Shown here: in pieces, positions 5,804 through 27,957 of the stretch | Layout: each line of letters begins with the position of its first letter | Position numbering within the stretch: position 1 is the first letter of the stretch | Origin: Lacrimispora indolis DSM 755 | GTDB taxonomy: Bacteria; Bacillota; Clostridia; Lachnospirales; Lachnospiraceae | Reading direction: 5' to 3' | NCBI RefSeq assembly: GCF_000526995.1 | Contig: NZ_AZUI01000001.1 | Span: 5,126,001-5,190,000, forward strand | Length of the DNA: 64,000 nt | Notes under the pieces: generated by a model | Told to the model about the DNA's origin: nothing | What the model saw: only the letters and a program-made list of their open reading frames with translations | Databases searched by the model: none | Translations under genes and position numbers: made by a program

Positions 5804-6427
5804 TTACTCCTCATTTCCGGTCTCCAATATCTTTTCAATATTGGTTTTCACCAGCTGGAACGCAACCTCATTCATGCCGCTGTTTATGATCACATCCGCC
5901 AGAGGTTTTGTAGGCTCTACGTACAAATAGTGCATGGGTTTCACTGTAGTAAGATATTGCTCCACAACACCCTCAATATCCCGGCCTCTTTCTTTTACGT
6001 CGCGGATTACGCGGCGAAGGATACGCTCGTCGGCATCAGCCTCTACAAAAATTTTAATATCAAACATGCTCCTTAGGCGCTCATCTGCAAAAACCAGGAT
6101 TCCCTCGACCAAAATAACCTTCTTAGGCTCCACCTTCACCTGCTTCTGAGAACGGTTGTGCATGGAATAATCATAAACAGGGCAGTCAACCGCCTTTCCA
6201 TCCCGCAGCATCTGGAGCTGTTCCAGCAAAAGCTCTGTTTCAAAAGCTTCGGGATGGTCATAATTCATTTTCTTTCTCTCTTCAAAAGAAAGTTCATCCT
6301 GTTTTTTATAATAATTATCATGGTAAATCACCGCAATGTCATCGCCAAACGCAGCCTTCAGCCGGTTGGTAAAGGTAGACTTCCCCGAACCGGTCCCTCC
6401 GGCAATTCCAATTAACACACAATTCAT
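5804..6427 (-). CDS. udk: Uridine kinase
   Basis: Pyrimidine salvage enzyme that phosphorylates uridine and cytidine. The 207-residue protein begins MNCVLIGIAGGTGSGKST with the P-loop at about residues 7-18, and shows YDHPEAF, the RRVIRDVKERGR lid region and VEPTKPLADVI, as in Firmicute Udk. The ATG at 6427 follows GGAGGAG; the open frame to 6493 is a non-conserved extension. It stands alone between the SASP gene and a DUF975 gene. Confidence 0.96.
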   Translation of the reverse strand: MNCVLIGIAGGTGSGKSTFTNRLKAAFGDDIAVIYHDNYYKKQDELSFEERKKMNYDHPEAFETELLLEQLQMLRDGKAVDCPVYDYSMHNRSQKQVKVEPKKVILVEGILVFADERLRSMFDIKIFVEADADERILRRVIRDVKERGRDIEGVVEQYLTTVKPMHYLYVEPTKPLADVIINSGMNEVAFQLVKTNIEKILETGNEE

Positions 6428-22308: not shown

Positions 22309-22586
22309 ATCGAGCAGGAGGCGGTGACTAACCGCCGTCCTCTCACAGCACCGTGCGTACCATTCGGTACACGGTGCTTTCAATAGTTGATGTGCGCAGA
22401 CTGATAAGCTGTGGCTAAGTCATAAAAGCCACTGATTATCAGTCTTTCTTTTGTTAGTGCTCTGTTGACAGCACCCATTCCCGATACATACCAGTGTTTT
22501 CTTCGACTATTAGCCGCTTGGTGTGCAAAATATTCGGGTATGCCAAGTTTCATCTGATTCCTCTTCTTGGTTTTTGGCTTCTTTCA
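22309..22586 (-). mobile_element. 3' remnant of a group II intron
   Basis: Read on the minus strand, this ends in a domain V hairpin (22347-22378) starting with the AGC triad (AGCACCGUG...CACGGUGCU), then GUGAGAGG, a domain VI stem (GGCGGU/ACCGCC) and the 3' end CUCGAU at 22309. Before it lies the last 67 codons of a group II reverse transcriptase/maturase. Everything 5' of about 22586 is gone, so the element is dead. It lies 17 bp after rqcH and marks the border of the AT-rich island. Confidence 0.85.
22380..22583 (-). pseudogene. C-terminal fragment of group II intron reverse transcriptase/maturase (LtrA-like)
   Basis: In-frame codons from 22583 to the stop at 22380-22382 read KKPKTKKRNQMKLGIPEYFA and then NSRRKHWYVSGMGAVNRAL, ending AYQSAHINY. 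This matches the last part of LtrA-type proteins (a basic segment, then LGI, then the W-containing LTN-like end). A stop codon and unrelated sequence lie directly upstream, where a Trp codon would be expected. All catalytic reverse transcriptase motifs are missing. Confidence 0.8.
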
Positions 22587-22876
22587 TTGAATGTATAATT
22601 TGTTTATTTATATGTTTGTTGTGTTCTTTTTACACAATTTCCTTTATTTTCCATTTAAATTAATGTAAAATATATAGATTCTTGTCGAATACTATTATTA
22701 TAATTTTATTTAAAAGGACATACTTCACTTGCTCAGGAGTTTGATTTAACTGAAAAAATATTGAGCACTAAAATGACGGTTAAAAGAAATGCTAAACGGA
22801 TAATCGTGGAAGAACCCACCCCATAAGTATATTCATCTTTTCAGACTTTGTTGAAAAGGCAACTATTGGAAAGGAC
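22587..22876. other. Gene-poor AT-rich stretch before the sensor paralog
   Basis: About 290 bp between the intron scrap and the minus-strand sensor gene. It holds the solo agrC-type promoter element (22632-22676) and no convincing gene. Confidence 0.6.
22632..22676 (+). promoter_or_regulatory. Solo copy of the agrC upstream element
   Basis: These 45 bp match the agrC upstream region 25801-25845 at 38 of 45 positions, in the same orientation, ending in GTAAAATATATA. No agrC follows here; downstream is only a 17-codon ATG frame (22774-22827) without a good ribosome site. It may be a leftover of an ancestral locus duplication or a second regulator-binding promoter. Confidence 0.55.
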
Positions 22877-23515
22877 CTATTTTGCGCTTAAGATTTTATA
22901 GATTGAATGCAAACGAAACACTGTGATAACAAATAGCACTAAGAAAATAATTCCATTTAATGCAATGACGTCATGAGTATAGCCAAGGCGTTCTCCATAT
23001 GAAAAGTTAAATATATAAAAAAGCATTAATAAAAGAAGATAAACAAAAATAGCTTTTAGTAAAGTGTGATTTGTTAAATACTTAGCAATATTTAGCTTTT
23101 CATGAATGTAATAACCAATTAATTTAGTAGTGATTCCGCAAAACATACAATAAATACAAGAAAAAATTATAGGAGACAAATTACGTGCAATTAGTGTCTT
23201 CATATCTATTTTAAAGATGAAATAAACCAACAATAAAAACAGATAGTTGAATGTAATTCCATAAAGATAGCCAAATAAATAACAGGATAGACTTAAGTAA
23301 CGATTATGTGTAAAAAAATATAACAAAAGCATGGTTCCCCCAAAGGAGATAAACGTACTGGTCTGTCCATAGCTTCGAGTAAAAAGAAAAAGTGTACTAA
23401 AAGTATATAAAAATATAACAAGTCGTTTCATAATTGTCAAGTTATCCGGAAGTAAATATGTACAAAAAAAGTAATGGCATAAGGTTCCCGAAAAAATATA
23501 AAAAAAATAATTCAT
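22877..23515 (-). CDS. Stand-alone AgrC-type membrane sensor domain (kinase-less paralog)
   Basis: A 212-residue polytopic membrane protein that is clearly a paralog of the first ~215 residues of agrC (25874-27184): shared stretches include NYLF-type helices, SYLFGYLY-like LSLSCYLFGYLY, YIFNFSYGERLGY and VIALNGIIFL. It stops at ILSAK just where AgrC continues into its His-kinase part, so it has sensor helices but no kinase. The leader matches agrC too (AAGGAG, then TACATCATGA). The frame is intact, which argues for a kept function such as signal decoy, peptide transport or a partner subunit. It may also be a young remnant. Confidence 0.75.
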   Translation of the reverse strand: MNYFFYIFSGTLCHYFFCTYLLPDNLTIMKRLVIFLYTFSTLFLFTRSYGQTSTFISFGGTMLLLYFFTHNRYLSLSCYLFGYLYGITFNYLFLLLVYFIFKIDMKTLIARNLSPIIFSCIYCMFCGITTKLIGYYIHEKLNIAKYLTNHTLLKAIFVYLLLLMLFYIFNFSYGERLGYTHDVIALNGIIFLVLFVITVFRLHSIYKILSAK

Positions 23516-23789
23516 GATGTAACTCCTTACTGGTAGATATATGTATATTTATCTGACATATTATAACAATTCAATAAAGAATGGACTTTTAAAAAATTAG
23601 GCATTTCTCATAATCTAAGGAAGCAGAAAGATTTACTCTTATCTCACTACTTAGAGCCCTATAGAAATAAAAACCCCCACACTGAGTAATTCTACCCTAC
23701 TTACATCAGTTTGAAGGTGTTCACAATCTTTGAGACATTTCCTATTCGATACTTGTCTATATTAACATTATATCAGCTGCTTTCTCTAG
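23516..23789. other. Leader of the sensor paralog and spacer
   Basis: 274 bp with no gene seen. On the minus strand the part next to 23515 resembles the agrC leader, and a TATAAT-like -10 occurs about 50 bp before the sensor start. The rest is AT-rich with no recognised element. Confidence 0.5.
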
Positions 23790-23969
23790 TTAAATATCAC
23801 TACTCTCCACCACGGCTTTTCTTTCCGGTATGGTTGTTATCACATCAATAAAGTATTCGTCTGGGATGATTTTTCTACTTCTGTACTTAGACATAATGCT
23901 CTTTCGTAGATAAGCATCTGCTATATTCTTTTCCAATCTAAGAATTTTTTGAAATAAATTTATTTTCAT
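23790..23969 (-). CDS. Small 59-residue peptide, copy 1
   Basis: Begins MKINLFQKILRLEKNIADAY and carries the core RKIIPDEYFIDVITTIPERK, ending VVESSDI. It is a close paralog of the 59-residue peptide at 24356-24535 (same length, central 20-residue block nearly identical), which is good evidence that the frame is real. The N-terminal part is basic and amphipathic; there is no Cys, no signal peptide and no clear membrane helix. AGGAG lies 9 nt upstream. Its ATG overlaps the stop of a 51-codon frame (ATGA). Family unknown; it lies downstream of agrBD on the same strand, so it could be an agr-controlled peptide. Confidence 0.65.
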   Translation of the reverse strand: MKINLFQKILRLEKNIADAYLRKSIMSKYRSRKIIPDEYFIDVITTIPERKAVVESSDI

Positions 23970-24121
23970 GCGTATTCACTCCTACACTTTTCCGTAAAAG
24001 CTTGAAAAACCAGTTCAGATACTAGTCCCATTTTAATGAAGCTGAAATATTTCCAGAAATTTTCCGTGTAACCACTGGCCGTCTTTGAAATACTGGCATC
24101 GATTATCTTACTTATAAACAT
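23966..24121 (-). CDS. Possible 51-residue ORF coupled to peptide copy 1
   Basis: Open frame starting MFISKIIDASISKTASGYTE and ending AFTEKCRSEYA; its TGA overlaps the ATG of the next gene (ATGA), the usual form of translational coupling. The ribosome site is weak (AGG 5 nt upstream), and peptide copy 2 has no equivalent frame upstream. Predicted mostly helical with one Cys. No family recognised. It may be a real small gene or chance. Confidence 0.4.
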   Translation of the reverse strand: MFISKIIDASISKTASGYTENFWKYFSFIKMGLVSELVFQAFTEKCRSEYA

Positions 24122-24177
24122 AGCTGCCTATCGGAAGTGATTCGAAAGCCAGTAATTACTATTTTTATCTGGTTTCA

Positions 24178-24329
24178 ACTGAGTAACTATAAAACCTTTG
24201 AATGAAAACAAATTCCAATTACCGAATTTAAAAACCTTACAATAAATTTATATTTGTGTTTTTGGCATAGTGGTACTTTTCCTTTCCATAATAATTGCAT
24301 TATAGGAGCCATACAGAACTGCTTTTACC
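24178..24329 (-). repeat. Diverged duplication, copy A
   Basis: Shares two blocks with 24693-24942: ACTGAGTA..ATAAAAC..TGAATGA.AACAAATTCCA type sequence, and a block centred on CTTTC.ATAAT..ATTATAG. Copy B has about 100 extra bases in the middle. Read on minus, both encode a similar relic (SYNAIIMERKSTTMP here, FYNDNVVIIERKSAFMP in B) without a start. With the adjacent 59-residue gene, each forms a duplicated unit of about 0.57 kb. Confidence 0.65.
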
Positions 24330-24355
24330 AATATTCCGTTAACTACCTATCCTGG

Positions 24356-24535
24356 TTAAAAATCAATATTCACCATCACAGCATTTCTTTCTGGTATAGT
24401 AGTTATCACATCAATAAAATATTCATCCGGAATGATCTTTCTCTTTCTGTGTTTTGACATGGCACTCTTTTGCATAGGATCAGTCGATAAATTCTTTTTC
24501 AGTCTTAAAAATTTTCGAAATGTATTATTTTTCAT
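24356..24535 (-). CDS. Small 59-residue peptide, copy 2
   Basis: Begins MKNNTFRKFLRLKKNLSTDP, then SAMSKHRKRKIIPDEYF and IDVITTIPERNAVMVNIDF. It has the same length as copy 1, with RKIIPDEYFIDVITTIPER unchanged while the N-terminal half has diverged, a pattern expected from selection on the C-terminal half. AGGAG is about 8 nt upstream of ATG 24535. It lies between the agrBD terminator and copy 1. Function unknown: possible secreted peptide, regulator or toxin/antitoxin part. Confidence 0.65.
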   Translation of the reverse strand: MKNNTFRKFLRLKKNLSTDPMQKSAMSKHRKRKIIPDEYFIDVITTIPERNAVMVNIDF

Positions 24536-24643
24536 CTGCCTTATCTCCTATTTTGTCATCCCCTTGTATAGAAAGATGCACGCTGACACTATACATATAG
24601 AACAGTCTAAAAAGTATCCAGCCAGTTCCATTCAATTAACTAA

Positions 24644-24671
24644 CTGCCCTTTGAATTAATTCAAAGGGCAG
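24644..24671 (-). terminator. Perfect 28-bp palindrome after agrBD
   Basis: CTGCCCTTTGAATT and its exact complement with no loop base between. Placed about 310 bp after agrD and 110 bp before peptide copy 2. Both sides are AT-rich, so it may end transcripts in both directions; it could also be an operator. Confidence 0.55.
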
Positions 24672-24692
24672 AAATTATTTTAACCTTATTTT

Positions 24693-24942
24693 ACTGAGTA
24701 TCCATAAAACTTCTGAATGAGAACAAATTCCATATATTCATTTAACTTTTTATAGGAATCATAATTAATCCAGGCAAAAGTTTCCCCCTTGTTACTACAG
24801 TAATCATATTATACACACTCCAACTAGTTGGAATTGAAAATCCCATAAAATTTATATACATTATTTTCATGGGCATAAAGGCGCTTTTTCTTTCTATAAT
24901 TACCACATTGTCATTATAGAACTCATACCGGACTGTTTGAAC
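24693..24942 (-). repeat. Diverged duplication, copy B
   Basis: Counterpart of 24178-24329 with an added stretch of about 100 bp. On the minus strand the frame after the relic block stays open (MPMKIMYINFMGFSIPTSW, then about 25 more codons) but has no ribosome site, so I do not call a gene. Confidence 0.6.
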
Positions 24943-24980
24943 TTAAATTAAAAGCCAAAATTCTTTCCCTCACTAATTTC

Positions 24981-25127
24981 TTACTTTGTATTCTCATTAC
25001 GCATCTTTAACACTGCTTCCGGAATTTTTCTTTCATAAATTAAAGCCGGAATGCTTCTCCCTACTGAATTTAGGGACACTTTTACTAATGCTTTTTGTAA
25101 TTCTTCTGCAGCCATTTTTTTCATCAT
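24981..25127 (-). CDS. agrD: AgrD-like autoinducing peptide precursor (Ser in place of Cys)
   Basis: A 48-residue precursor in the position of agrD: its ATG overlaps the agrB stop (TGATG) and AAGGAGA lies just upstream. It starts MMKKMAAEELQKALVKVSLN (amphipathic leader). It then has the putative signal SIPALI, and then YERKIPEAVLK, which aligns with the YEPKSP / DEVEVPKEL recognition part after the signal in Listeria and Staphylococcus AgrD. The ring-forming Cys is replaced by Ser25, so the product would be a lactone, perhaps with a six-residue ring Ser25-Ile30. The family call rests on context and this motif; the ring size is inference. Confidence 0.75.
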   Translation of the reverse strand: MMKKMAAEELQKALVKVSLNSVGRSIPALIYERKIPEAVLKMRNENTK

Positions 25128-25693
25128 CAATTCTCTCCTTTTACATTTACTTTACTTTTAGGAAGCAGAGTTAATACTTCCAAAATAACAGGATAAATAA
25201 TCAGCCCTCTTAAAAATGGACTTAAAAATGCAATTGTCATCATTAATGTTAAAACAACAATTGAATATAACTTCTTTCTTAATTTGTCTTGTACACTAAA
25301 GTACTTAATATTTATAGTTCTAGGAACACAGCAAATAACAACAAGAACAGAAACTATATAGATACAAGGCAAAAATGACGTTTTTATATCAAAATATGTA
25401 TCACCTAAAATAGATATTGCCCAAACTAACAACACACTAAATCCACAGCCCAAACCTGTTTTAGCGTGAATACCACCAGCCTGTAATCTCAAGGCACAAA
25501 ATGCAGATAACACCACAACGGTCTCAAACCCTTTTCCCAGGACAATTCCAATAAGCACGATAACAATAAGCTTAATAATATTGTCCAACAACAATTCCAC
25601 CCCATATTGAATTACCTTATTTTCTTCTGGACTTCTAGGACTTATTGTATTCAACCAATCGCAAAAACCGACAGCAACTTTGGAAATACTCAT
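25127..25693 (-). CDS. agrB: AgrB-type peptide-processing membrane protease
   Basis: Cuts the C-terminal tail of AgrD and closes the ring. The 188-residue membrane protein keeps the catalytic pair H76 and C83 in RLQAGGIHAKTGLGCGF, and has about five or six helices, as in the family. Encoded just before agrD with overlapping codons and divergent from agrC. Upstream on the minus strand TTGTTG-N17-TATATG may be its promoter; the ribosome site is GGTGGTG. Confidence 0.93.
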   Translation of the reverse strand: MSISKVAVGFCDWLNTISPRSPEENKVIQYGVELLLDNIIKLIVIVLIGIVLGKGFETVVVLSAFCALRLQAGGIHAKTGLGCGFSVLLVWAISILGDTYFDIKTSFLPCIYIVSVLVVICCVPRTINIKYFSVQDKLRKKLYSIVVLTLMMTIAFLSPFLRGLIIYPVILEVLTLLPKSKVNVKGEN

Positions 25694-25800
25694 TTTATCA
25701 CCACCATTTGACCATATACTAGCATATATTTATGCCAACAAAATATTTTTGTAGTTTCCGTAGTATATTTCTTCCTAAGCGTAAAATGCATCTACTTTTC

Positions 25801-25845
25801 ATACAATTTTCTTTACTTTCCATTTATAACAAGGTAAAATATATA
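25801..25845 (+). promoter_or_regulatory. agrC upstream element
   Basis: A 45-bp element before agrC that is 38/45 identical to 22632-22676. It holds CTTTACTTTCCATTTA and ends GGTAAAATATATA, which can serve as a -10 region. A LytTR-type regulator site (AgrA) is expected in this intergenic region. Confidence 0.5.
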
Positions 25846-25873
25846 CATACATCTACTGGCAAGGAGATACATC

Positions 25874-27184
25874 ATGACTTATTTTATTTATACATTTACA
25901 GGGGCCTTATGTGTTTACTTTTTTTGTGTGCACTTACTCCCTAATAAGTTGACAATTCTTAGGCGGTTTATTTTATTTTTATATACTTTTGGCACCGCTT
26001 TTCTTTTTAACCGAATTTTCGGACAAGCCAGCACATTCATTACCTTTTCAGGGCTCACACTTATAATTTATCTTTTTACTAGTAATCACTATTTGAGCCT
26101 ATCCTGTTATTTATTTGGCTATCTTTATACAATTACATTTAACTATTTGTTTATGTGGGGAGCCGGTTTCATATTTAAAATGGATATGGAGGCTTTAATA
26201 ACTCACCATTTTTTGCTTATCATTTTTTCTTGCATTTATTGTTTATTCTGTGGAACTACAACAAAACTAATTGGTCATTATATTCATAAAAAATTAAATA
26301 TAACAAAATATTTAACCAACCACCATATGCTAAAAGCTATTTTTATTAATCTTTTTCTCTTGGTGCTCTTTTACATTTTCAACTTTTCTTATGGAGAGCG
26401 CCTTGGATATAATTACGGTGTTATTGCATTAAATGGAATCATTTTTTTATTATTGTTTACAGTCACAGTCTTTCTCATGTATTCTGTTTATAAAGTCACA
26501 ATGGGCGAACAAGCTTACAAACATCGTATGGCACAATTTGAAAACCTTCGCACCTACACGGAACGTTTGGAAAATTCCTACGGAATTATGCGTAAATTCA
26601 AGCATGACTATATGAATATACTTATTACAATGTCTGGATTTATGAAAGAAAATGATATGGATGGCCTAAAGGAATATTACAGTGATAGAATCCTCCCCAT
26701 CAGCCGTGCATTTACAGAATCAGACACCAAGCTGGGAATTCTCTCCAATATTAAAAACACCGCCTTAAAAAGCCTGCTCTCCTCTAAATTCGTCTATATG
26801 ATGGAGGTAGGTATCAAAATAGAAATAGAATTGACTGAGTCAATCGACGAACTTACCATAGATTGCCTGGATCTATCCAGGATCATCGGCATATTTTTAG
26901 ACAATGCCATGGAAGCTGCTATGGAGACAGAAGAAAAGAAAGTGCATTTTTGCATGTTTTATAAGGAGATGGATCTCTATCTCATTATTCAAAACACGGC
27001 CCTTCCTCCAGATTATGCCATATCAGAACTTCGAAACCATAACGTTTCAACAAAAGGAGAAAATAGAGGAATCGGCCTTTTTAACGTGGATATGATTCTA
27101 AAAGGCTATAAAAATGTTGTTTGGAATACTACATATGAAGAACCTTATTTCACACAAGAACTAATCCTAATGCATAACGAATAA
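25874..27184 (+). CDS. agrC: AgrC-type sensor histidine kinase
   Basis: Membrane receptor for the cyclic peptide. Of 436 residues, about 1-215 form six or seven helices (sensor part). After this come the dimerisation/phosphoacceptor helix with H244 in FKHDYMN, the N box IFLDNAMEAAME and the G box GENRGIGLFNV. The lack of a classic HisKA motif and the short ATPase part fit the HPK10/AgrC class. AAGGAG precedes ATG 25874. Followed 14 bp later by agrA. The sensor half has a paralog at 22877-23515. Confidence 0.92.
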   Translation: MTYFIYTFTGALCVYFFCVHLLPNKLTILRRFILFLYTFGTAFLFNRIFGQASTFITFSGLTLIIYLFTSNHYLSLSCYLFGYLYTITFNYLFMWGAGFIFKMDMEALITHHFLLIIFSCIYCLFCGTTTKLIGHYIHKKLNITKYLTNHHMLKAIFINLFLLVLFYIFNFSYGERLGYNYGVIALNGIIFLLLFTVTVFLMYSVYKVTMGEQAYKHRMAQFENLRTYTERLENSYGIMRKFKHDYMNILITMSGFMKENDMDGLKEYYSDRILPISRAFTESDTKLGILSNIKNTALKSLLSSKFVYMMEVGIKIEIELTESIDELTIDCLDLSRIIGIFLDNAMEAAMETEEKKVHFCMFYKEMDLYLIIQNTALPPDYAISELRNHNVSTKGENRGIGLFNVDMILKGYKNVVWNTTYEEPYFTQELILMHNE

Positions 27185-27198
27185 TAAGGAGTACAAAA

Positions 27199-27957
27199 AT
27201 GATCCACATATATCTTTGTGAAGATGATAAAAGACAATTAAATCGCTGGGTAGACATTATAGAAAAATATTTATTGATGAACCCAACGGAAGCCAAGCTT
27301 TACTGTTCCGCCTCAAAACCGGAAGAGTTGCTTTCCATGCGGAGAAGATCAAGCACTACCGGACTTTATTTTTTGGACATTGATTTGCAGTCAAATAAAA
27401 ATGGAATTGAACTGGCCCAGGAGATACGAAAATATGACCCTCGCGGTTATATCGTTTTCGTAACTACTCACAGTGAAATGGCTGTTCTTACCTTTCGCTA
27501 CAAAGTTGAAGCAATGGATTTTATTATTAAAGATGAATCGGATACCTTACCCCAGCAAATATGTTCTTGTATTCAGAACGTTGAAAGAAATTATAAGGCG
27601 CAGCTGGATTCCTCCAACCGCCTCTTATCCATAAAGGTTGATAAAGATTCCTTAATTCTGGATCAAAATGATATTGTCGCCATTACAACCGGCGACGATC
27701 CCCATAAGCTTATAGTACATACTAAAACCGGAGTCCGGCAGATTTCAGGCTCGTTAAAAGAATTCCATGTGACCTTAAATTCTGGTTTCTGCCAATGCAA
27801 CCGTTCTACCATCGTAAATCTAAAGCATGTATTAAAATATTCCAGAGATAACGCTTTGCTTCTCATGGATAACAAAGAAACTTATTCCGTATCCATACGT
27901 ATGCTTGGTAAAGTTCAGAAAGCTTTAAACAGTTTTCATCCATCTATAGCGAAATAG
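27199..27957 (+). CDS. agrA: AgrA-type LytTR response regulator
   Basis: Response regulator of 252 residues: receiver domain (about 1-125, acidic pocket E8/D9/D10, phosphoacceptor D60 in FLDIDL, Lys near 113) and a LytTR DNA-binding domain (about 145-245, with CQCNRSTIVNLKHV). Partner of agrC; by homology it should activate the agrBD promoter in the 25694-25873 gap. TAAGGAG ribosome site. Confidence 0.93.
   Translation: MIHIYLCEDDKRQLNRWVDIIEKYLLMNPTEAKLYCSASKPEELLSMRRRSSTTGLYFLDIDLQSNKNGIELAQEIRKYDPRGYIVFVTTHSEMAVLTFRYKVEAMDFIIKDESDTLPQQICSCIQNVERNYKAQLDSSNRLLSIKVDKDSLILDQNDIVAITTGDDPHKLIVHTKTGVRQISGSLKEFHVTLNSGFCQCNRSTIVNLKHVLKYSRDNALLLMDNKETYSVSIRMLGKVQKALNSFHPSIAK

What the first reader, a model, noticed from the sequence alone, without database searches (positions are those of the whole stretch)
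22632..27957. Expanded agr quorum-sensing island with extra small genes and a kinase-less sensor
Seen: agrB-agrD (minus) and agrC-agrA (plus) form a full divergent agr locus. Downstream of agrBD on the same strand are two paralogous 59-residue genes, a coupled 51-residue ORF and an intact copy of only the AgrC membrane part. A second copy of the agrC upstream element lies at the far end. Established: agr loci usually hold four genes. Inference: the extra genes are effectors, immunity or tuning parts of the agr circuit, and the island arose by local duplication next to a dead group II intron.
Basis: partly seen in the sequence, partly recalled or inferred. Interest (0 to 1): 0.8.

Follow-up and report, generated by a model that had tools for sequence, protein, structure and literature searches.

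The report
Enlarged agr quorum-sensing locus in Lacrimispora
This bacterium's peptide quorum-sensing locus carries, besides the usual four genes, a small protein gene found at the same place in every genome of its genus that was examined, a conserved and probably structured RNA stretch in front of it, and a shortened copy of the signal receptor without its kinase part, all of unknown effect on signalling.

Summary
The window has a divergent agr locus (agrB-agrD minus, agrC-agrA plus), two paralogous 59-aa genes (p59), a kinase-less AgrC (agrCN, 212 aa, 68% identical to the AgrC membrane part) and a second agrC promoter copy. New here: (1) p59 is no local oddity: it is the next gene after agrD in 25 of 25 genus genomes (Lacrimispora, by named matches), and of 395 other family genomes only 1 has even a weak match. 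What duplicated in the window is this stretch plus p59; the second stretch has decayed. (3) agrCN belongs to one clade of nine 212-aa proteins but is seen in only 2 of 25 species genomes, and is closer between those two species than the rest of agr, which suggests exchange between lineages. (4) I found no support for the coupled 51-aa ORF. Best reading: an agr-linked output/feedback module (RNA leader plus small protein), with the kinase-less receptor acting as a decoy that damps the circuit. Anatomy and conservation are shown; regulation and function are inferred. A new variant of the known agr system.

The parts
25127..25693 (-). agrB, peptide-processing membrane protein, 188 aa
   Evidence: Pfam AgrB E 4e-26; agrB seen in all 24 fetched genus loci (cut by a contig end in L047)
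24981..25127 (-). agrD, pro-peptide, 48 aa, start overlaps the agrB stop; Ser-(Ile/Phe)-Pro in place of the usual Cys
   Evidence: no Pfam AgrD match and no NCBIfam match
24536..24980 (-). agrD-p59a intergenic stretch with conserved RNA-like element: TCCGGTATGAGT near 24923-24934, hairpin, GAAAAAGC, AAGGGGG in an internal loop between two helices (24690-24808), strong hairpin 24644-24671
   Evidence: 5' core in 18 of 25 genomes, AGGGG run in 24 of 25; frames not kept; fold z -2.72 here
24356..24535 (-). p59a, 59-aa small protein
   Evidence: family found at this place in 25 of 25 genus genomes
23970..24355 (-). decayed second copy of the RNA-like stretch (no 5' core, no AGGGG run); the 51-aa ORF 23966-24121 lies in it
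   Evidence: D3 and D4
23790..23969 (-). p59b, second p59 paralogue
   Evidence: 64% to p59a; clade 100/97 with six other proteins, on a tree with few columns
22877..23515 (-). agrCN, kinase-less AgrC: membrane sensor part only, 212 aa, six hydrophobic segments
   Evidence: 68% to AgrC; nine-member clade 100/100; hydropathy
22823..22848 (-). likely remnant of the lost kinase region downstream of agrCN (matches agrC 26600-26625, 81% over 26 nt)
   Evidence: I5; the flank is shared with L040
22626..22679 (+). left-over copy of the agrC promoter element, pointing away from agrCN
   Evidence: D2, 83% to 25795-25848; aligned with agrC promoters
25694..25873 (.). divergent agrB/agrC control region; agrC core promoter 25812-25840 and a candidate AgrA double site near 25750-25785
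   Evidence: alignment of 19 agrB-agrC regions plus the two extra copies; promoter scan, whose total (29) is no more than chance (27.3); the AgrA site is my reading
25874..27184 (+). agrC, sensor histidine kinase, 436 aa
27199..27957 (+). agrA, LytTR response regulator, 252 aa

Best explanation
This is the standing agr locus of the genus with a genus-specific output/feedback module, plus a later decoy receptor in one lineage. SHOWN: agrBD and agrCA are divergent; a conserved RNA-like stretch and the small protein gene p59 follow agrD on the same strand; in the window stretch-plus-p59 is duplicated in tandem; a copy of the agrC 5' half lies downstream, without its kinase half and inverted relative to a promoter copy; the kinase-less protein exists as nine intact 212-aa sequences. 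INFERRED: AgrA, activated by the peptide through AgrC, drives agrB-agrD and reads through into the RNA stretch and p59; the stretch works in cis as a leader/attenuator that sets how much p59 is made at high cell density; p59, a small protein with a predicted N-terminal helix and a conserved IPxxY...P tail, acts inside the cell on a component of the circuit or on targets. AgrCN keeps the six-segment sensor part but cannot phosphorylate AgrA, so it most likely takes up peptide, or pairs with AgrC, and raises the threshold (decoy receptor).
For: p59 is the next gene after agrD in 25 of 25 genus genomes; pairwise dN is below dS in 36 of 36 pairs of nine p59 sequences. The agrD-p59 stretch keeps blocks but not frames; the 5' core pattern occurs once per genome in 17 of 25, each time at agr, reversed-pattern control 0 of 25. 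Fold z -6.55, -5.07 and -2.72 in the three loci folded. Class B: 88.2% of cells paired, four pairs changed on both sides (8/500 shuffles reach this), covariation score 0.218 against 0.153 (0/500). agrCN: nine 212-aa proteins in one clade, 100/100. By hand from the branch lengths, about 200 amino-acid changes lie inside that clade; with nonsense/missense 0.064 drift would give about 13 stop codons; the nine have none. In L040 agrCN still has the agrC core promoter.
Against: No expression data: co-transcription, AgrA control and RNA function are untested. The window-L040 agrCN pair shows only weak selection (dN/dS 0.47; about 0.7 by hand if transitions weigh double). No second AgrC-N copy in 23 of 25 species genomes (in fragmented G015 not even agrC). 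A protein database favours intact genes, and a tenth protein, P0085 (224 aa), has a shifted N-terminus: a broken copy or a sequencing error. Class A, the window's class: one pair changed on both sides, score reached by 59/500 shuffles. In class B the number of further pair types is no better than shuffles (391/500). Six class D genomes and L042 lack the 5' core, and class C pairs the G-run. Structure prediction for p59 is poor (pLDDT 59). A promoter-like match (10 of 12) lies inside the window's stretch at 24941-24913 minus, so p59 may not depend on the agrB promoter.
Confidence: 0.45

Rival explanations
1. agrCN is a dying leftover of an agrC duplication with no function; it looks intact because it is young and moves between lineages.
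For: dN/dS 0.47 at dS only 0.25 between window and L040, while agrC-N, agrB and agrA of the same pair have dS 0.76, 0.75 and 1.09; seen in 2 of 25 species genomes; in the window cut off from its promoter by an inversion; P0085 has a shifted N-terminus.
Against: Nine distinct proteins of identical length in one clade without stop codons, against about 13 expected under drift; only 9.8% of simulated neutral lineages with half the window-L040 differences stayed intact.
Confidence: 0.3
2. p59 is a second AgrB client: an AgrD-like precursor with an N-terminal helix, a variable middle and a conserved tail, giving a second peptide.
For: Position after agrD, similar size, variable middle between more conserved ends.
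Against: Profile comparison with AgrD finds no relation (probability 0.6%); no invariant Cys or Ser in the middle.
Confidence: 0.08
3. The RNA-like stretch is a trans-acting agr effector, in the role of staphylococcal RNAIII, and p59 is a small protein it carries or neighbours.
For: Non-coding, conserved and in classes B and C strongly folded; the G-rich run is left unpaired in an internal loop in 11 of 24 predicted folds, as a pairing site would be.
Against: RNAIII not among the Rfam matches at any threshold tried; same strand as agrBD, not a divergent transcript; sequence differs much between classes; the G-run is paired in 7 of 24 folds.
Confidence: 0.15
4. The stretch is plain untranslated sequence, conserved only because the species are related; p59 is an unrelated gene that happens to sit there.
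For: Class A species are close and covariation there is weak.
Against: A 12-mer with 11 of 12 positions unchanged in 13 rows from three classes and L050, while the neighbouring columns differ; strong fold z in classes B and C; p59 beside agrD in 25 of 25.
Confidence: 0.1

Closest known systems
agr quorum sensing, agrBDCA of Staphylococcus, Listeria and Clostridia
   Same: AgrB and AgrA domains, GHKL kinase AgrC, small AgrD after agrB
   Different: agrBD and agrCA are divergent rather than one operon; AgrD has Ser in place of the usual Cys (that Cys is usual is recalled); a fifth gene p59 and an RNA-like stretch follow agrD; a kinase-less AgrC copy in one lineage
RNAIII of Staphylococcus (agr effector RNA)
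   Same: conserved, apparently structured, non-coding stretch inside an agr locus
   Different: not found by Rfam; lies downstream of agrD on the same strand, not a divergent transcript; function untested. For C. [quoted passage not shown]
Truncated AgrC of S. aureus (PMC3841183, search listing and start of abstract only)
   Same: a part of AgrC studied alone
   Different: an engineered protein; its name (TM5-6 plus C) implies that it keeps the kinase and drops most of the membrane part, the reverse of agrCN
Divergent agr loci of two other genera of the family (L154, L155)
   Same: agrB and a small agrD-like ORF minus, agrC-agrA plus
   Different: no p59 match and no second AgrC membrane part in the stretches held (L154 is cut by a contig end beyond agrA)

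Membership tests
agr quorum-sensing system | AgrB family protease | tested here: met
   Pfam AgrB 92 bits, cut-off 23
agr quorum-sensing system | AgrD pro-peptide after agrB | tested here: inconclusive
   48-aa ORF overlapping agrB, related ORF in 24 of 24 fetched loci, but no AgrD model match in Pfam or NCBIfam
agr quorum-sensing system | AgrC: multi-pass membrane sensor with GHKL kinase | tested here: met
   GHKL 51.4 bits, cut-off 22; six hydrophobic segments; NCBIfam staphylococcal AgrC 203.7 bits, below its cut-off 500
agr quorum-sensing system | AgrA: receiver plus LytTR | tested here: met
   both Pfam domains above cut-off; NCBIfam AgrA 160.8 bits, below its cut-off 400
agr quorum-sensing system | peptide-dependent activation | not testable with these tools
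   needs synthetic peptide and a reporter
sensor histidine kinase (agrCN) | dimerisation/phospho-acceptor and ATPase domains | tested here: not met
   no Pfam domain at E up to 1 in the window protein, P0077 and P0082
decoy receptor (agrCN works like one) | binds the peptide and lowers signalling | not testable with these tools
   sensor part kept at 68% identity; binding not testable
RNAIII (Rfam) | match to the Rfam model | tested here: not met
   no window match at gathering; RNAIII not among the four matches at E up to 5
group II intron remnant beside the locus | domain V at or above Rfam's cut-off | tested here: inconclusive
   34.8 bits, cut-off 40, E 2.4e-4 at 22309-22379(-); the 57-aa ORF 22380-22553(-) has no Pfam match
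AgrD-like precursor (p59) | profile similarity to AgrD | tested here: not met
   hhalign probability 0.6%

The most novel reading that the evidence does not exclude
The agr locus of Lacrimispora encodes its own RNA effector, an independently evolved counterpart of RNAIII placed behind agrD, together with a dedicated small protein partner p59; and one lineage has evolved, and passes between species, a kinase-less receptor that acts as a natural decoy, so that cells can ignore or absorb a neighbour's peptide.
Probability: 0.12. Interest if true: 0.8.

Novelty: new variant of a known kind. Interest (0 to 1): 0.55.

Why it matters
agr loci are usually described as four genes, and outside staphylococci it is mostly unknown how they act on the cell (recalled). 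A small protein fixed beside agrD in every genus genome examined, behind a conserved RNA-like stretch, is a direct candidate for the missing output in a cultivable clostridial genus. A natural kinase-less AgrC that persists and seems to move between lineages would be a testable case of receptor decoys in bacterial peptide signalling.

Tried and rejected
Coding reading of the agrD-p59 stretch (54-aa ORF 24742-24906): rejected, since the frame is not kept in relatives although the DNA is conserved. AgrD origin of p59: rejected. Known family or solved structure for p59: none in Pfam or NCBIfam at E up to 1 except one Pfam match at E 0.15 for p59b, none in PHROGs (p59a only), two PDB rows with E 0.45 and 0.8 taken as chance. 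Known RNA family: none at its cut-off; weaker matches were PyrG leader (30.1 bits, cut-off 65) and a microRNA model at the strong hairpin, and three in relatives, best 31.4 bits with cut-off 40; taken as chance. RNA core outside the genus: a looser pattern matched 17 of 395 non-genus genomes against 7 of 397 for the reversed control, so more than the control; but none of the 18 loci held (of 19 matches) has an agrB, agrD, agrC, agrA or p59 match within about 1.5 kb, while both genus loci do. p59 outside the genus: one weak match (G300, E 8e-4, inside a 182-aa frame) not counted as a relative and not examined. Structure models: p59 pLDDT 59, agrCN pLDDT 53; too poor for fold searches, none run. 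Literature: 0 papers hold 'Lacrimispora', 'agr' and 'quorum sensing'; 1 unrelated paper holds 'agr locus' and 'Clostridium saccharolyticum'; no listing on a natural kinase-less AgrC (listings only); general agr searches. They cover open-licence PMC papers only.
Full report
What is there. The window lies at 5126001-5190000 of a 6.38-Mb single-contig genome. The locus has agrB-agrD on the minus strand and agrC-agrA on the plus strand. The genome has three more distant agrB relatives elsewhere.

p59 belongs to the locus throughout the genus. A profile of p59 finds it in 25 of 25 genus genomes, once in each but twice in the window's. In the 24 fetched neighbourhoods plus the window, agrD and agrB lie beside p59 in 25 of 25, agrC and agrA in 24 of 25 (L047 is cut by a contig end), and rqc2 is seen in 24 of 25 (not in the part held of L040). 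Of 397 family genomes drawn evenly, 3 matched: two of the genus and one weak match. Outside the genus the closest AgrC is 35% identical. Twelve such loci were fetched; tblastn finds agrB in seven and p59 in none of the twelve, and two of them (L154, L155) show the same divergent agrBD/agrCA layout. p59 is 50 to 64 aa in the 24 loci (start codons were chosen by a ribosome-binding-like site, so that site is no independent evidence). Net charge runs from -1 to +8. The two window copies have no hydrophobic segment. dN is below dS in 36 of 36 pairs of nine sequences. Invariant in 28 aligned sequences are I35, P36, Y39 and P48.

A conserved RNA-like stretch precedes p59. Between agrD and p59 (43 to 467 nt) the DNA is conserved but no reading frame is kept. 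The blocks are TCCGGTATGAGT, a hairpin of changing sequence, GAAAAAGC, then a run AGGGG. The first two blocks occur in 18 of 25 genomes (17 by exact pattern, plus L043 with CAAAAAGC); six class D genomes and L042 lack them. In 13 aligned rows 11 of the 12 positions of the first block do not vary. The AGGGG run is in 24 of 25. Three loci were folded against shuffles: z -2.72 (window), -6.55 (L033), -5.07 (L035). In unconstrained folds of 24 loci the G-run lies unpaired in an internal loop between two helices in 11 (window, L038, L049, L052; all six of class B; L050), unpaired in another setting in the six of class D, and paired in 7 (L037, L040, L051 and the four of class C). Pair counts: class B (six rows, five distinct) 88.2% of cells paired, four pairs changed on both sides, covariation score above all 500 shuffles, but further pair types no better than shuffles (391/500) and the inner helix only 80% paired; class A (seven rows) 97.8% paired with little variation and no significant covariation (127/500 and 59/500). 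Structure is thus well supported in class B, supported by folding energy in one locus of class C, and only suggestive in the window's class. No Rfam family reaches its cut-off. A strong hairpin at 24644-24671 precedes p59a; the terminator scan reports it on the opposite strand only.

Duplication in the window. p59b and a decayed copy of the stretch repeat the unit (the copy has neither the core nor the AGGGG run). p59b is an old paralogue: it forms a clade (100/97) with six proteins from other sequences, on a tree flagged for few columns, and three further pairs of p59 proteins, one of this clade and one not, share a longest-contig length (726955, 6936, 153426). That each pair lies on one contig is inference.

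The kinase-less receptor. agrCN aligns with AgrC residues 1-208, ends at residue 212 and is followed by a likely remnant of the kinase region. The protein search lists 15 proteins, of which ten are 74% or more identical to it, the window's own included; nine of the ten are exactly 212 aa. The tenth, P0085 (224 aa), has a shifted N-terminus and was left out of the tree; the other five are longer AgrC-like proteins. The nine form one clade, 100/100. In genomes it is seen in G000 and G008 only, 2 of 25. In G008 it still has the agrC core promoter and a stub resembling the agrB start; the second half of the candidate AgrA site is changed there (the half-site reading is mine, after the two direct repeats described in PMC4227749, passages only). 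In the window the promoter copy points away from agrCN, so an inversion is the simplest account. Window and G008 agrCN differ by dS 0.25 and dN 0.12, while agrC-N, agrB and agrA of the same pair differ by dS 0.76, 0.75 and 1.09. The two receptor genes thus parted later than the rest of the locus, which suggests exchange or conversion. Selection on that pair is weak. The absence of stop codons in nine proteins against about 13 expected (hand calculation) is the stronger sign of use, with the caveat that protein databases favour intact genes.

Mechanism. The proposed working is given in the best explanation: agr-driven output/feedback through RNA leader and p59, decoy receptor in one lineage. 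Every functional step is inference from position and conservation. The kinase-less receptor could also be a relic (0.3).

Literature. [quoted passage not shown] difficile; passages of PMC12405376 were also seen. Searches found no paper on agr in this genus or on a natural kinase-less AgrC (listings only); this covers only the open-licence library.

Noticed in passing
window 24981-25127 and 24 genus relatives: AgrD has Ser-(Ile/Phe)-Pro where a Cys is usual: 24 of 24 fetched loci and the window; only L051 has a Cys, in its tail. By analogy with clostridial AgrD (recalled) the peptide would be a Ser lactone with a six-residue ring, or linear.
   Followed up: partly
L057, L058, L059 (genome positions near 2669578, 3433569 and 66268): Three further agrB relatives in the same genome, 23-31% identical; L057 has a small Cys-containing AgrD-like ORF at 5943-6095(-).
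   Followed up: partly
window 22309-22379 (-): Match to group II intron domain V, 34.8 bits, below Rfam's cut-off of 40; likely a remnant beside rqc2.
   Followed up: partly
window 24913-24941 (-): Promoter-like match (10 of 12) inside the conserved stretch; its TATAAT is shared by the class A relatives but not by classes B and C.
   Followed up: no
window 23516-23789 (-): About 270 nt between p59b and agrCN of unknown origin, with a TATAAT before agrCN; what expresses agrCN after the inversion is unclear.
   Followed up: no
L038 6685-6735; L056 7060-7615: agrC in G006 and agrB in G024 align in two pieces in different frames: frameshifts or sequencing errors.
   Followed up: no
non-genus loci L106-L123: The looser RNA-core pattern matches 17 of 395 non-genus genomes, more than the reversed control (7 of 397), without agr genes near the 18 loci held; unexplained excess, perhaps coding-sequence bias.
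   Followed up: partly
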